IMG/VR virus record: IMGVR_UViG_3300024255_000034
Coordinates: 1-53,180 of that record
Direction: 5' to 3' (one strand)
DNA length: 53,180 nucleotides
Origin: a virus
Every line of letters begins with the position of its first letter. The stretch's first letter is position 1. Made by a program: the position numbers and the translations under genes. This document shows, piece after piece, positions 2,006 to 39,869 of this stretch. The notes beneath the pieces are model-generated. The model was not told the origin of the DNA. It worked only from the letters and a program-made list of their open reading frames with translations, and did not search any database.

Positions 2006-2896
2006 ATGTCAAGTTTAGATAAACTAAGAGCAGCCATGGAAACTGCTTCACCTACAGAAGGTGCAAAAAAATCCTACGGAGACGATAGTTATTGGAAACC
2101 CGAACTAGATAAAACTGGTAATGGATTTGCAGTAGTTAGATTCTTGCCAACTCCCGAAGGAGAAGAGATGCCTTGGGTATCATACTTCGACCACGGGTTC
2201 CAAGGGCCAGGTGGCTGGTATATTGAGAAGTCTTTAACGACTCTTAATAAACAAGACCCTGTTTCTGAATACAATACCCAGTTATGGAATACAGGTATTG
2301 AAGCAAATAAAGAGATTGCACGTAAACAGAAAAGACGTTTACATTATGTGTCTAATGTCTATGTTGTTTCAGACCCTAAAAATCCTGCTAACGAAGGTCA
2401 AGTATTTAAATACAGATTTGGTAAAAAAATCTTTGAACAACTCAAAGAGGCTATATCACCTGCATTTGAAGATGAACAAGCAATCAACCCTTTTGATTTA
2501 AGGGAAGGTGCGAACTTCAAAATCAAAATTAGAAAAGTGGACGGTTACTGGAACTATGATAAATCAGAGTTCGATTCAGTTTCACCATTATTCGAAGATG
2601 AGGATAAGTTGAACACTACATATAGTTCTGCATATTCTTTGACTGGTATTATTGCACCAAGTGAATTCAAAACATACGAGGAACTCAAAGAGAAACTCGA
2701 TAGAGTGTTAGGATTAACTGGTTCAGTAAGTACATCAACTGCAGAGTCAGTTGCAGAAGACCTAGACGAAGTGCCTTGGTCTAATGTTAACACTGAGTCA
2801 GTTGCAGATGAACCTGTAATCTCATCAGTAGAATCTACTTCTGAAGGTGAAGAAGATGATGCGATGGATTACTTCAAAAAACTTGCTTCTGAATAA
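2006..2896 (+). CDS. 32: gp32 single-stranded DNA-binding protein
   Basis: A 296-residue protein matching T4 gp32 (301 aa), the cooperative ssDNA-binding protein of replication, recombination and repair. The N-terminal SSLDKLRAAME segment corresponds to the basic cooperativity domain. The core OB region carries the conserved ENEGKVFKYRFGKKI-type segment (here NEGQVFKYRFGKKIF). The C-terminal tail is acidic (SEGEEDDAMDYF) and is the interaction surface for gp59 and other replication proteins. The protein contains no cysteine, so the three Cys ligands of the T4 structural zinc site are missing. Where T4 has its Cys-rich loop, this protein reads DPVSEYN followed by a Lys/Arg-rich helix. A strong AGGAGA site precedes the ATG. 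Confidence 0.95.
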   Translation: MSSLDKLRAAMETASPTEGAKKSYGDDSYWKPELDKTGNGFAVVRFLPTPEGEEMPWVSYFDHGFQGPGGWYIEKSLTTLNKQDPVSEYNTQLWNTGIEANKEIARKQKRRLHYVSNVYVVSDPKNPANEGQVFKYRFGKKIFEQLKEAISPAFEDEQAINPFDLREGANFKIKIRKVDGYWNYDKSEFDSVSPLFEDEDKLNTTYSSAYSLTGIIAPSEFKTYEELKEKLDRVLGLTGSVSTSTAESVAEDLDEVPWSNVNTESVADEPVISSVESTSEGEEDDAMDYFKKLASE

Positions 2897-3085
2897 GTAA
2901 GTTTTTTAAACGGGGGTGTTGACATATCATTATGTGTCCTTGAATAGTCAACACCGAACTGATAACGAAGGAGTGGGGTTAATCAGTAAGGGAAAGATTC
3001 TTGGGGTCAGAGCGGAAGAATCGGTTAAGAGCGGGAATGCTGTAAAGTGAAGGGGCGACTTAACATCTAATTTAAAGAGAGAAAT
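2897..3085 (+). ncRNA. candidate structured RNA or leader upstream of bS21
   Basis: These 189 bases hold no credible ORF and are visibly richer in G than the neighbours. Four perfect stems follow in series: GGTGTTGAC (2915-2923) with GTCAACACC (2947-2955); ACTGAT (2958-2963) with ATCAGT (2982-2987); GATTCTT (2996-3002) with AAGAATC (3016-3022); GTTAAG (3024-3029) with CTTAAC (3059-3064). Loops contain GGAGTGGGG and GGGGTCAGAGCGG. The array ends about 20 bases before the bS21 start, leaving AAAGAGAG free as ribosome binding site. It could be a cis-regulatory leader for bS21, a gene 32 3' UTR or an independent small RNA. I recognise no known class. Confidence 0.55.
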
Positions 3086-3322
3086 ATGCCAGAAGTTAAA
3101 CCAAGAATAGATAGGAAAAGTAATAATGTTGAACCATTCGATAGAATGTTAAGACGTTTTAAAAAGATGTGTGATAATGCAGGTATTGTACAAGAGGTTA
3201 GAGATAGAAAGTATCACGAAAAACCTAACGATACTAAGAATCAAAGGAATCAAGATTTAAAAAGAAGGAAAAAGTTAAACAAGAAGAGAGAACAATCTGC
3301 TTCTTTTAGAAAGATAAGATAA
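3086..3322 (+). CDS. rpsU: phage-encoded ribosomal protein bS21
   Basis: A 78-residue, strongly basic protein (bacterial bS21 is about 70 aa). It shows the family signature: a short N-terminal strand, then [17 protein letters not shown] (about residues 18-34), then [13 protein letters not shown], and a Lys/Arg-rich C-terminal helix. bS21 sits on the 30S platform near the anti-Shine-Dalgarno end of 16S rRNA and affects initiation. Phage-encoded bS21 is known from marine phages, where exchange into host ribosomes has been proposed. Its position right after gene 32, preceded by a structured non-coding stretch, suggests controlled expression. It overlaps the next gene by one base (TAATG). Confidence 0.9.
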
Positions 3323-3516
3323 TGAGTAATTGGCATGGGGGAAAAGGTTCCAAGAGAAGGAACTCAAACGAAGAAGCCTATGCTGATAACTGGGAGAAAA
3401 TCTTTGGTAAAAAGAAACCCGAAATTAAAGTAAGAAAAGAAACACCGAGTCACGGTGCATCACAAGTCCATTCGGACAAAACAAAATACAATCGAAAGAA
3501 AATTAAGAGTACTTAA
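3322..3516 (+). CDS. small basic conserved protein (WHGGKGSKRR type)
   Basis: A 64-residue, highly basic protein beginning NWHGGKGSKRRNS, with a central YADNWEKIFGKKKPE and a polar Lys/Ser/His tail. Proteins of the 'GGKGS..R...Y..NWD.IFGKK' type are common small hypotheticals in T4-like and other marine phages. The function is unknown to me; charge and size suggest nucleic-acid or ribosome contact. It is translationally coupled to bS21 (ATG overlaps its TAA). Its last 14 bases overlap the convergent tape-measure-like gene, and no terminator is visible between them. Confidence 0.65.
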   Translation: MSNWHGGKGSKRRNSNEEAYADNWEKIFGKKKPEIKVRKETPSHGASQVHSDKTKYNRKKIKST

Positions 3517-7202: not shown

Positions 7203-8264
7203 TTAACCACCAAATAAACTACTAAAATCTCTTAATGAGTCTTTTAGTCTGCTTACTTGTGAATCATATTTATTAAATCTCTTAAGGTATTTTTCTGCCC
7301 CATCGTCACCAAACTGGGCTGCAAGTCCTAGACCTTCTAAAATACCATCAAATCTTCTTCTACCACTATTTAGACCACTAGGATTGACCTTATTACTACC
7401 ATTGTATACACTATGTAAGTCTGATAAGTCGGCAACTAATTTTGCATCTTTATATTCTGTAGTAAAATGTTGGAATGCCATGGTGACTGAAAATAATAAC
7501 ATATCAGCACTATCCATTGATAGAGTTTGTGCTGTAATTGCTTTTGGAAATGCATTATGTAATGTATTTTTAACTGTTGTTGTCCCTTCACCCATTCTTC
7601 CGTCTCTTCTTAAATGTTCAATCTCAACACTTCCATGGTATGTAATAGGATATTGGAATACTGGAAGTTTATTTCTTTCGTGCGATACTGAACTATAGTC
7701 ACCGTCAGTTAAAGGTGCAGTATCAGTAGATACAATGTAATCCATCCATGCTTGTAATATTTTTCTATCTACGAAATCGGTATCACAATAGAATGATATT
7801 TCCATTTCATGCATGTCATTAACAACACCTGTTGGAACTATTTTAGTTTTTCCTACTGGAGAATACCCTTCAGTTTCTATTGTCCTTGAAGGTAACGAAG
7901 CATTTCTACATCTCACGCCTTCTAGTGAAAGACTTACACCTTTTGCGTTATTTCCAGCTGCTACACCCACACTTTCTATACCTAGTAATTCATCTTCAAA
8001 CTCTGTTTCAATTCGCCTTTGGTCAGTTCTAGTATTTTTACTTTTGTATAAAGTAGGCCCAAAGAAGTTTACTCTGAACTGGTTTGTCATTGCAGGAGTA
8101 GATAAGTTTGCCATTAATTTGTCTATAGAAAAACTTGGTCTTGAACTTATTCTTTTTGATTCAGCATTAGCTGCATCACTTCTTAGTCCTTCTTGTAATG
8201 CTTCAACATCTATCTTTGGTTGAACATCTTTGATACTTGGTATTTTATATTTTTTTATTTCCAT
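7203..8264 (-). CDS. 54: gp54-like tail tube initiator
   Basis: A 353-residue protein with the tail-tube fold pattern shared by gp19, gp48 and gp54. The middle holds RNASLPSRTIETEGYSPVGK and MEISFYCDTDFVDRKILQAWMDYI. The fold ends with FPKAITAQTLSMDSADMLLFSVTMAFQHF, close to the 'P..I....L.Y......FSV.FAY' tube strand motif. The order 'sugar-like loop - displacement strand - DF..RK..QAWMD' resembles T4 gp54, which starts tube polymerisation on gp48. gp48 itself is encoded at 11209. An N-terminal extension of about 45 residues and a helical C-terminal tail of about 80 residues are extra. It could instead be another tube-fold protein. The start overlaps the preceding stop. Confidence 0.6.
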   Translation of the reverse strand: MEIKKYKIPSIKDVQPKIDVEALQEGLRSDAANAESKRISSRPSFSIDKLMANLSTPAMTNQFRVNFFGPTLYKSKNTRTDQRRIETEFEDELLGIESVGVAAGNNAKGVSLSLEGVRCRNASLPSRTIETEGYSPVGKTKIVPTGVVNDMHEMEISFYCDTDFVDRKILQAWMDYIVSTDTAPLTDGDYSSVSHERNKLPVFQYPITYHGSVEIEHLRRDGRMGEGTTTVKNTLHNAFPKAITAQTLSMDSADMLLFSVTMAFQHFTTEYKDAKLVADLSDLHSVYNGSNKVNPSGLNSGRRRFDGILEGLGLAAQFGDDGAEKYLKRFNKYDSQVSRLKDSLRDFSSLFGG

Positions 8265-8863
8265 TAATAACTCTCTACTTTTATCCTACTATCTCTGTAA
8301 ACTGTATGTGCATTTGTACTTTTGGTAAATTCATAAGCTGGTAGTAAACTTACAATATCCCAATCACTGTATGGTACTTCTTTAATTTGTCCTTGTATTT
8401 CAGATGTAAGATATCTTTTAATACAAGGTCTTGCCCATTTCAACCTAGCAGACTTACGAATCAAATCATAACTCATTTGTATCCTTGTATCTTCTTCACT
8501 TTGACCGTCAAAGTCTCTAGTGTATCTTAATAATTCTGTTAATAATTCTACTCTTCTTAATGGATGAATGTAGTGTAAATTCAATCCATAAAATCCATCT
8601 GTTGTAAATTTAAATGGTATGACTAATGGAAATCTATCATAGTAAGGTAGTACATCTCTCCATTTTGCAATGTATGAAAACATGAACATTCCACCTATGA
8701 CTGGTCTATCCTTATCAATGTAGTTTTCAGAGTATTCTTCTCTTACTCTAGAGCTTATTTTCATAGACCCTATCGCACCTCTAAACCAGTTTAAGGATTC
8801 TTGCGATTGTCGTTTTAACTCAACAGGAGTCATTTCACTAAGACGTGTGACAAGATTAATCAT
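8264..8863 (-). CDS. conserved tail/virion protein with GLNLHYIHPLRR motif
   Basis: A 199-residue basic protein containing FKFTTDGFYGLNLHYIHPLRR (about residues 86-106) and YLTSEIQGQIKEVPYSDWDI near the C-terminus. I recognise this 'P....GF.GLN.HYL....R' family as widespread in T4-like marine phages, usually lying with tail genes, but I cannot assign a firm T4 number. It is cotranscribed with the gp54-like and gp26 genes. A perfect minus-strand late box TATAAATA at 8876-8869 lies five bases before the ATG, with no Shine-Dalgarno, so the predicted late mRNA is leaderless. Confidence 0.55.
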   Translation of the reverse strand: MINLVTRLSEMTPVELKRQSQESLNWFRGAIGSMKISSRVREEYSENYIDKDRPVIGGMFMFSYIAKWRDVLPYYDRFPLVIPFKFTTDGFYGLNLHYIHPLRRVELLTELLRYTRDFDGQSEEDTRIQMSYDLIRKSARLKWARPCIKRYLTSEIQGQIKEVPYSDWDIVSLLPAYEFTKSTNAHTVYRDSRIKVESY

Positions 8864-16674: not shown

Positions 16675-17094
16675 ATGGCACAATATGTTAACAATGGAAC
16701 AACAGTCGCAAGTGAGAACATTTACTCGGACTTAAACATTTCCTTTAAGGCACATCCAATTACGGGAGATGTGACAAGAACCACTGATGTTGATTCAGTT
16801 ATAAGGTCTATAAAAAATATAGTATCAACTAATGCATATGAAAGACCATTCAAACCAAATTTTGGTGCAGACATAAGGTCTATGTTATTTGAATTAGATA
16901 CTACCATGTTTGGTCAGGATAGGGTTGCAAAAAGAATTGCAAATAAAATAGAAACTTTTGAACCTAGAGTAAGTGATGTGAAAATATCATTAGACGAAGT
17001 AAACCGTAATGAACTAAACATGACAATTTACTTTAGAGTAATAAACAGTATTAATGTAGAAGAGATTCAGTACATATTGACAAGGACACGATAA
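16675..17094 (+). CDS. 25: gp25 baseplate wedge protein
   Basis: A 139-residue protein (T4 gp25 is 132 aa) of the gp25/TssE family. Diagnostic block: YSDLNISFKAHPITGDVTRT, then VIRSIKNIVSTNAYERPFKPNFGADIRSMLFE, with the conserved EPR triplet (FEPRVSDV). gp25 sits in the inner wedge with gp6 and gp53 and helps start sheath polymerisation. Its stop overlaps the ATG of gene 6 by one base. Confidence 0.95.
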   Translation: MAQYVNNGTTVASENIYSDLNISFKAHPITGDVTRTTDVDSVIRSIKNIVSTNAYERPFKPNFGADIRSMLFELDTTMFGQDRVAKRIANKIETFEPRVSDVKISLDEVNRNELNMTIYFRVINSINVEEIQYILTRTR

Positions 17095-35426: not shown

Positions 35427-35759
35427 ATGGCTATACTTGCAAACATATTTATCGACCAAGGTGCTGACTTTTCAATCACTGTAGATGTCACGGACTCTTC
35501 AGGTGATGTATTAAACATGTCAGGATATTCTGCAGCTGCACAAATAAGAAAAACATATTCTTCTGCAACTGCAAGTGGAACATTCACATGTACCGTGCAA
35601 GAGGCGAGTGGTCAAGTGACCATGGCATTAACAGACACGCAAACAACAGCATTAGAAGCTGGTAGATATGTTTATGATATGACAGTCACCAGTGGTGGAG
35701 GAAACAAAACTAGAGTTGTTGAAGGTCAGGCAATTGTGACGCCAGGAGTGACAAGATGA
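35427..35759 (+). CDS. small beta-sandwich fibre/baseplate-associated protein
   Basis: A 110-residue protein: IFIDQGADFSITVDVTDSSGDVLNMSGYSAAAQIRK, then a beta-rich stretch ending RVVEGQAIVTPGVTR. This is a widespread phage structural type, similar in pattern to the N-terminal Ig-like domain of BppU-type receptor-binding proteins. It probably connects fibre components. It has its own late promoter and overlaps the next gene by four bases (ATGA). Confidence 0.6.
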   Translation: MAILANIFIDQGADFSITVDVTDSSGDVLNMSGYSAAAQIRKTYSSATASGTFTCTVQEASGQVTMALTDTQTTALEAGRYVYDMTVTSGGGNKTRVVEGQAIVTPGVTR

Positions 35760-39125: not shown

Positions 39126-39869
39126 ATGGCAACTAAAACTAAGTTCTTTACCGATTTAGGATTTCAATCCTTAGATAACAGCACCGTAGACGGAGACTTA
39201 ACAGTCACTGGAAACTTTACTGTTCAAGGAACTAGTTTAACAATTGACTCGACAACAGTTTCAGTTACTGATTCTATGTTTGAACTTGCAAGTGGAAACA
39301 CTACAAGTGATATTATTGACATAGGTATATACGGAAACTATGATGACGGATTATCAGATGGTTCAAGTGAATTTACAGGTCTTTTTAGAGACGCAACTGA
39401 TTCAACTTGGAAATTATTTGATGGACTGGAGGTCGAGCCAGGAAATACAGTAAACATTAGTGGAACGGGTTATGCATATGCAGACTTTAAAGCTGGTGAT
39501 ATAGAAGCAACAGGTCAGTTAACTGCAGTAGGCCCACTCTCTTTAAGTAATTTGAGAATGGATGCAGACCAAAATTTAACAACAACTGCAACAACAGAAG
39601 TAGATTTAGATACATTTCCATTACTGAGTTATAGAAGTGCAAAGTATCATATACAAGCATCACAAGGAACTAACTACCATGCAACAGAAGTTATGGTAAT
39701 ACATAATTCTACCAATGCTTATTTCTCTCAATTTGGTGACATCTATACAAACAACTCACTTTTTAGTTTGTCGGTTGACACAAATTCAGGAAATGTTAGA
39801 CTAAGGGTCACTCCTGCTTCAGCATCTTCTACTGCATTCAAAATAAGTAGAAATTTATTAAAAGTTTAG
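39126..39869 (+). CDS. fibre protein with shared C-terminal beta domain (3 of 3)
   Basis: A 247-residue protein. The N-terminus (ATKTKFFTDLGFQSLDNSTVDGDLTVTGNFTVQG) is a fibre collar pattern, followed by SLTIDSTTVSVTDSMFELASG. The C-terminal 90 residues (AKYHIQASQGTNYHATEVMVI ... RLRVTPASASSTAFKI) are the third copy of the domain at 37809 and 38644. It is expressed from its own late promoter without leader. Probably part of the adhesin complex. Confidence 0.65.
   Translation: MATKTKFFTDLGFQSLDNSTVDGDLTVTGNFTVQGTSLTIDSTTVSVTDSMFELASGNTTSDIIDIGIYGNYDDGLSDGSSEFTGLFRDATDSTWKLFDGLEVEPGNTVNISGTGYAYADFKAGDIEATGQLTAVGPLSLSNLRMDADQNLTTTATTEVDLDTFPLLSYRSAKYHIQASQGTNYHATEVMVIHNSTNAYFSQFGDIYTNNSLFSLSVDTNSGNVRLRVTPASASSTAFKISRNLLKV

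What the first reader, a model, noticed from the sequence alone, without database searches (positions are those of the whole stretch)
3086..3322. Phage-encoded ribosomal protein bS21
A full-length, intact bS21 with all core residues. Phage bS21 genes are known from marine phages, but their effect on host translation is largely unresolved. Here it is coupled to a small basic protein and has a structured upstream region, and several late genes look leaderless.
Basis: partly seen in the sequence, partly recalled or inferred. Interest (0 to 1): 0.6.

Follow-up and report, generated by a model that had tools for sequence, protein, structure and literature searches.

The report
Conserved phage RNA beside bS21 gene
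The ribosomal-protein gene in this marine phage is real and of a known kind, but just before it lies a strongly conserved folded RNA, found in more than a hundred related viral contigs and matching no catalogued RNA family, which in sister phages has its own late promoter and is therefore probably an RNA gene in its own right.

Summary
The bS21 gene (3086-3322) is real, full-length in its core and under purifying selection. Phage-encoded bS21 is already published, so that part is ordinary. The 189 nt between gp32 (ssDNA-binding protein) and bS21 hold a structured RNA of about 160 nt (2912-3071; hairpins P1-P4, P0 in front). Across 53 distinct relatives its pairs covary strongly: 98.5% of cells paired, covariation score 0.600 against 0.167 shuffled. 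It has no Rfam match even at E=10. A sister clade, linked by reciprocal covariance-model hits, keeps the RNA directly after gp32. There it lies behind a T4-type late promoter (TATAAATA, 42 of 42 distinct copies), often ends at a convergent gene, and bS21 lies about 2.6-3 kb upstream. So it is not a bS21 leader. Best reading: a phage-specific structured noncoding RNA, expressed late at least in that clade, probably trans-acting. Its function is unknown. 16S mimicry and anti-Shine-Dalgarno pairing were tested and not supported. A link to bS21 is only a lead: cultured relatives HTVC008M, Mosig and Melnitz carry bS21 without the RNA.

The parts
2006..2896 (+). gp32-like single-stranded DNA-binding protein; invariant upstream neighbour of the RNA
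   Evidence: PF08804 E=3.1e-37; phrog_224 E=8e-105
2876..2907 (+). P0 hairpin: gp32 C-terminal codons pair with the sequence after the stop codon
   Evidence: in 92 distinct clade-1 sequences the own-pair helix averages 9.2 bp against 7.3 bp for mismatched partners
2912..3071 (+). conserved structured noncoding RNA (P1-P4)
   Evidence: alignments A1/A2 of 53 sequences, covariation controls, CM R1 hit 105.9 bits (the window was in the training set), R2 (sister-clade model) hit E=0.0095; no Rfam hit
2915..2955 (+). P1 stem-loop
   Evidence: 53 of 53 relatives fold a stem of at least 6 bp here, with 50 distinct 5' strands
2958..2987 (+). P2 hairpin with GAAGGAGUGGGG loop (most relatives: CGUGGA...GGGG)
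2988..2995 (+). conserved unpaired linker AAGGGAAA between P2 and P3 (GAGGNAA in the sister clade)
   Evidence: near-invariant columns
2996..3022 (+). P3 hairpin with conserved GCGG on the 3' side
   Evidence: 6 of 7 pairs with two-sided changes
3024..3064 (+). P4 hairpin with CGGG / GCUGUAA / GGGG internal loop; a U-tract follows in many relatives, not in the window
   Evidence: 6 of 8 pairs with two-sided changes; T-run lengths 2-7
3086..3322 (+). bS21 (ribosomal protein S21)
3322..3516 (+). small basic protein of unknown function, start codon overlaps the bS21 stop
   Evidence: only a sub-threshold DUF7230 match; no relative in the public phage records; WHGGKG motif within 1.9 kb after the RNA in 130 of 169 clade-1 placements, redundant records included

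Best explanation
Besides an ordinary phage bS21 gene, the locus carries a structured noncoding RNA of about 160 nt that belongs to this phage group. SHOWN: it is an evolved RNA structure on the + strand, it follows gp32 in the loci found, and in the sister clade it has its own T4-type late-promoter sequence and is not a leader of bS21. INFERRED: it is made as a discrete transcript late in infection (sister clade) or as a stable 3' product of gp32 transcripts (window clade, where no late promoter is seen), and it works in trans. GUESSED: its conserved purine-rich internal loops bind a protein, the RNP acting during late phage gene expression; phage bS21 and the 30S subunit are candidate partners, not shown ones.
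For: Covariation: 98.5% of cells paired against 76.9% shuffled, score 0.600 against 0.167; with partners slid 1-3 columns the score is 0.10 or less. P1: 53/53 stems with 50 distinct strands. RNA rather than DNA element: one P3 pair is G-U in 28 of 53 sequences, which is A/C on the other strand. Homology of the two clades is reciprocal: R1 finds 8 sister-clade RNAs at the right place and strand (E 0.001-1), R2 finds window-clade RNAs (E to 4e-5; window 0.0095). Promoter: TATAAATA upstream in 42 of 42 distinct sister-clade copies, shortly after the gp32 stop. Convergent next gene ending about 200 nt past the gp32 stop in eight of nine sister-clade loci inspected. bS21 about 2.6-3 kb upstream there. 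Mean folding z = -2.97 over 53 sequences.
Against: No expression data of any kind; all RNA-bearing phages found are uncultured. In the window's own clade no TATAAATA precedes the RNA, and the U-tract is absent from the window. Trans action and any protein partner are not shown. A 3'-UTR role for gp32 mRNA (stability, termination) could also explain permanent linkage to gp32. Sister-clade covariation is thinner: 4 of 13 pairs with two-sided changes. Cross-clade model hits are mostly weak (E 1e-5 to 1).
Confidence: 0.68

Rival explanations
1. The RNA is a cis-regulatory leader of bS21 (for example autoregulation by bS21 binding, as with other ribosomal-protein leaders), with P4 and its U-tract as terminator or attenuator.
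For: In the window clade it lies 35-75 nt before bS21 in most loci; a U-tract often follows P4; bS21 has an RNA-binding precedent, OLE RNA (PMC12054373).
Against: Sister clade: same RNA, bS21 about 2.6-3 kb upstream, a convergent gene downstream in most loci inspected, own late promoter. Window clade: in several loci a gene sits between RNA and bS21, an N6/N4 DNA methylase where identified; in others a TTGACA-TATAAT-like promoter lies directly before the bS21 ATG. No resemblance to E. coli 16S (mean z 0.2).
Confidence: 0.1
2. The RNA is the 3' UTR of gp32 mRNA: a stabiliser, exonuclease block or terminator for a very abundant messenger.
For: Adjacent to gp32 in essentially every locus; P0 includes gp32 codons; U-tract after P4 in many relatives.
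Against: In the sister clade the late promoter lies between gp32 and the RNA; loop nucleotides are more conserved than stems, which a plain terminator does not need; cultured relatives have short simple sequences there instead.
Confidence: 0.15
3. DNA-level element (origin, recombination or packaging site) that happens to form hairpins.
For: It lies among replication genes and its position is fixed.
Against: G-U pairs are common and strand-specific; in the sister clade a late promoter is aimed through it.
Confidence: 0.04

Closest known systems
Phage-encoded bS21 (pelagiphage HTVC008M AGE60443; Mizuno 2019 PMC6375957; Chen 2022 PMC9723584)
   Same: Same PF01165 family, same broad group of T4-like marine phages; HTVC008M, Mosig and Melnitz all carry one.
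   Different: Those three genomes have no match to window-clade model R1 and only weak, chance-like matches or none to R2, not after gp32; their bS21 lies elsewhere. My tblastn with the window protein missed the HTVC008M copy, so 'no hit' there was not absence.
OLE RNA, which binds bS21 (PMC12054373)
   Same: A structured noncoding RNA for which bS21 is a shown partner; suggests what an RNA-bS21 complex could look like.
   Different: OLE is about 600 nt and found mostly in Bacillota; no Rfam match here even at E=10, and no excess of anti-Shine-Dalgarno pairing.
Structured noncoding RNAs already seen in phages (tmRNA and glutamine riboswitch of Melnitz/Mosig, PMC9004378; GOLLD, PMC12286853)
   Same: Structured RNAs carried by phages; the Melnitz tmRNA lies in the same gp33-gp59-gp32 neighbourhood.
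   Different: No Rfam match; no tRNA/tmRNA found in the window or in the RNA-bearing loci scanned.

Membership tests
Ribosomal protein bS21 (PF01165) | match over the curated Pfam cut-off | tested here: met
   48.6 bits, cut-off 27
Ribosomal protein bS21 (PF01165) | incorporated into the 30S subunit | not testable with these tools
   shown in the literature only for the HTVC008M homologue (PMC6375957)
T4-like phage | gp32, gp59 and late-transcription coactivator gp33 together | tested here: met
   PF08804, PF08993, PF16805
Ribosomal-protein leader for bS21 | lies in the 5' UTR of the bS21 transcript in all members | tested here: not met
   sister clade: bS21 about 2.6-3 kb upstream of the RNA; convergent gene downstream in eight of nine loci inspected
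Ribosomal-protein leader for bS21 | resembles the protein's 16S rRNA site | tested here: not met
   local sequence alignment to E. coli 16S at shuffle level, mean z 0.2 and -0.3; a purely structural mimic is not excluded
Any Rfam 15 family | covariance-model match | tested here: not met
   none at gathering score or E<=10 over 2850-3150; none at E<=1 in five relatives
Independent phage noncoding RNA gene | own promoter | tested here: inconclusive
   TATAAATA in 42/42 distinct sister-clade copies; none found before the RNA in the window clade
Independent phage noncoding RNA gene | expressed as a discrete transcript | not testable with these tools
   no transcript data available

The most novel reading that the evidence does not exclude
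A new class of phage noncoding RNA that assembles with phage bS21 or the 30S platform to redirect late translation, for instance of the leaderless late messages that these phages seem to make.
Probability: 0.12. Interest if true: 0.85.

Novelty: new variant of a known kind. Interest (0 to 1): 0.6.

Why it matters
Phage bS21 genes are widespread in aquatic viruses, and what they do to host translation is unresolved. The pelagimyophage survey PMC7029224 concluded that S21 is in no specific gene cluster and suggested that no other viral factor is needed. Here a large uncultured group keeps a conserved structured RNA within about 3 kb of bS21, which gives a concrete, testable candidate for such a factor, or, if the two are unrelated, an undescribed family of late phage RNA with a defined structure to assay.

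Tried and rejected
16S mimicry: an 11-nt match to E. coli 16S (AAAGCGTGGGG) in some sequences looked tempting; alignment scores are at shuffle level. Anti-Shine-Dalgarno pairing: duplex energy no stronger than shuffles, mean z +0.3 and +1.1. 'RNA and bS21 always occur together': dropped as proof, because HTVC008M, Mosig and Melnitz have bS21 without the RNA and the first searches were seeded on bS21. Second copies of the RNA in L049/L051/L062/L079: short regular-expression matches, which on inspection lack the rest of the RNA and look like coding sequence. Bacterial homologues: a loose pattern in 84,980 species genomes gave 7 hits, only one real by model (L434), and it is a phage-like stretch in a Sphingobacteriales MAG, so no host RNA was found and host assignment stays open. 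Isolate phages by DNA similarity to the RNA: only chance-level hits. Rfam: nothing. CsrA-type GGA titration was considered by eye and dropped because GGA is not kept in P3; not computed.

Full report
The observation. The ORF at 3086-3322 is bS21: Pfam PF01165 at 48.6 bits (cut-off 27), PHROG 'ribosomal protein S21', sequence matches to solved bS21 chains, and purifying selection against relatives (dN/dS 0.08-0.29 where dS is above zero). Its stop overlaps the start of a 64-aa basic protein (TAATG). The neighbours gp33, gp59 and gp32 make this a T4-like phage. The record is a 53-kb virus contig. Phage bS21 is published, including incorporation of the HTVC008M protein into E. coli ribosomes (PMC6375957) and late expression in other phages (PMC9723584). 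This part is ordinary.

The upstream region. The 189 nt between gp32 and bS21 do not fold remarkably on their own (z = -0.93). A bS21 search of viral contigs gave 80 relatives, and in most of them the gap is a conserved multi-hairpin sequence. A second, RNA-only pattern search, not seeded on bS21, again returned loci with the gp32 C-terminal signature just upstream; bS21 followed 14-75 nt later, or about 0.8-0.95 kb later where a gene is inserted, except in seven placements where my ORF search found none (six of those have under 0.8 kb of sequence downstream, and the seventh record does carry bS21). The one insert I identified is an N6/N4 DNA methylase (L003).

Structure. On 53 distinct sequences, 98.5% of cells of P2-P4 form standard pairs (76.9% after shuffling 3' letters), 16 of 23 pairs change on both sides, the covariation score is 0.600 (shuffled 0.167), and sliding the 3' partners by 1-3 columns drops it to 0.10 or less. 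The structure was derived from these sequences, so the slide control is biased in its favour; the shuffles do not keep relatedness. P1 folds in 53 of 53 with 50 different 5' strands. Mean folding z is -2.97. P0, which uses gp32's last codons, also pairs better with its own partner than with others' (9.2 against 7.3 bp). The loops (CGUGGA...GGGG, AAGGGNAA, GCGG, CGGG, GCUGUAA, GGGG) are more conserved than most stem positions. No Rfam family matches.

The sister clade. A gp32 search and a second one with a sister-clade gp32 brought in more distant phages (window against sister-clade gp32 about 57-62% identical). Some carry a diverged version of the RNA after gp32; others have an ordinary short terminator. 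The window-clade model R1 finds eight of the diverged copies at E 0.001-1, all at the expected place and strand; the sister model R2 finds window-clade copies down to E=4e-5 and the window itself at 0.0095. A pattern scan then gave 42 distinct sister-clade copies. All 42 have the T4 late-promoter octamer TATAAATA upstream, 85-112 nt before the conserved GAGG; gp32 lies directly upstream in 41 (the other contig is cut). In nine loci I inspected, the next gene was convergent and ended about 200 nt after the gp32 stop in eight. Where the contig reaches far enough, bS21 lies about 2.6-3.1 kb upstream of the RNA, between gp33 and gp59 in the one I read gene by gene (L254). So the RNA cannot be a bS21 leader in that clade, and has what looks like its own promoter.

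What it most likely is. I conclude that it is a noncoding RNA proper to this phage group. That it is an evolved + strand RNA is shown: strand-specific G-U pairs are common. That it is a discrete late transcript in the sister clade is inferred from the promoter sequence. That the window clade makes it from gp32 transcripts is inferred from the lack of a late promoter there. That it acts in trans, through a protein bound at its purine-rich loops, is a guess. bS21 is a candidate because it stays close by in both arrangements and because it has a known noncoding-RNA partner elsewhere (OLE RNA, PMC12054373). Against weighting that much: bS21 is reported as core to pelagimyophages (PMC7029224), and HTVC008M, Mosig and Melnitz have it without the RNA. 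Seven RNA-bearing records lack a bS21 match; they are 5.5-20 kb fragments, and I take them to end before the expected place, which I checked for some of them only.

Limits. No expression data; no cultured RNA-bearing phage; E-values of session models are rough; many viral contigs are fragments and near-duplicates, so 'over a hundred' counts contigs, while distinct copies are about 92 in the window clade and 42 in the sister clade. Literature was searched only in the open-licence library held; I found no description of this RNA there, which does not prove that none exists.

Noticed in passing
window 8264-8863 (-), 16675-17094 (+), 35427-35759 (+), 39126-39869 (+): Late-promoter octamer TATAAATA only 5-6 nt before ATG and no Shine-Dalgarno motif (for example gtataaatagtattATG): probable leaderless late messages.
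   Followed up: partly
L024, L036, L055, L070, L076, L078, just upstream of bS21: A TTGACA/TATAAT-like promoter a few nt before the bS21 ATG, suggesting leaderless bS21 messages separate from the RNA in some relatives (read by eye).
   Followed up: no
L003 3100-3999 and similar inserts in L042, L060, L074: An N6/N4 DNA methylase gene sits between the RNA and bS21 in part of the window clade (identified by Pfam in L003).
   Followed up: partly
L052, L060, L126 within P2: P2 carries an extra apical stretch or hairpin in some relatives; L101 has lost P1 and the P2 G-run.
   Followed up: no
L314, L316: Minimal versions of the RNA (reduced P2, then P3 and P4) directly behind TATAAATA.
   Followed up: partly
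L434 (contig JAAXIF010000105.1): A phage-like stretch with gp32, the RNA, a methylase-like gene and bS21 lies on a 121-kb contig binned in a Sphingobacteriales MAG; a weak host hint or a binning error.
   Followed up: no
L280 1404-1477 (HTVC008M): A tRNA-Gly gene is predicted just upstream of the bS21 of pelagiphage HTVC008M.
   Followed up: no
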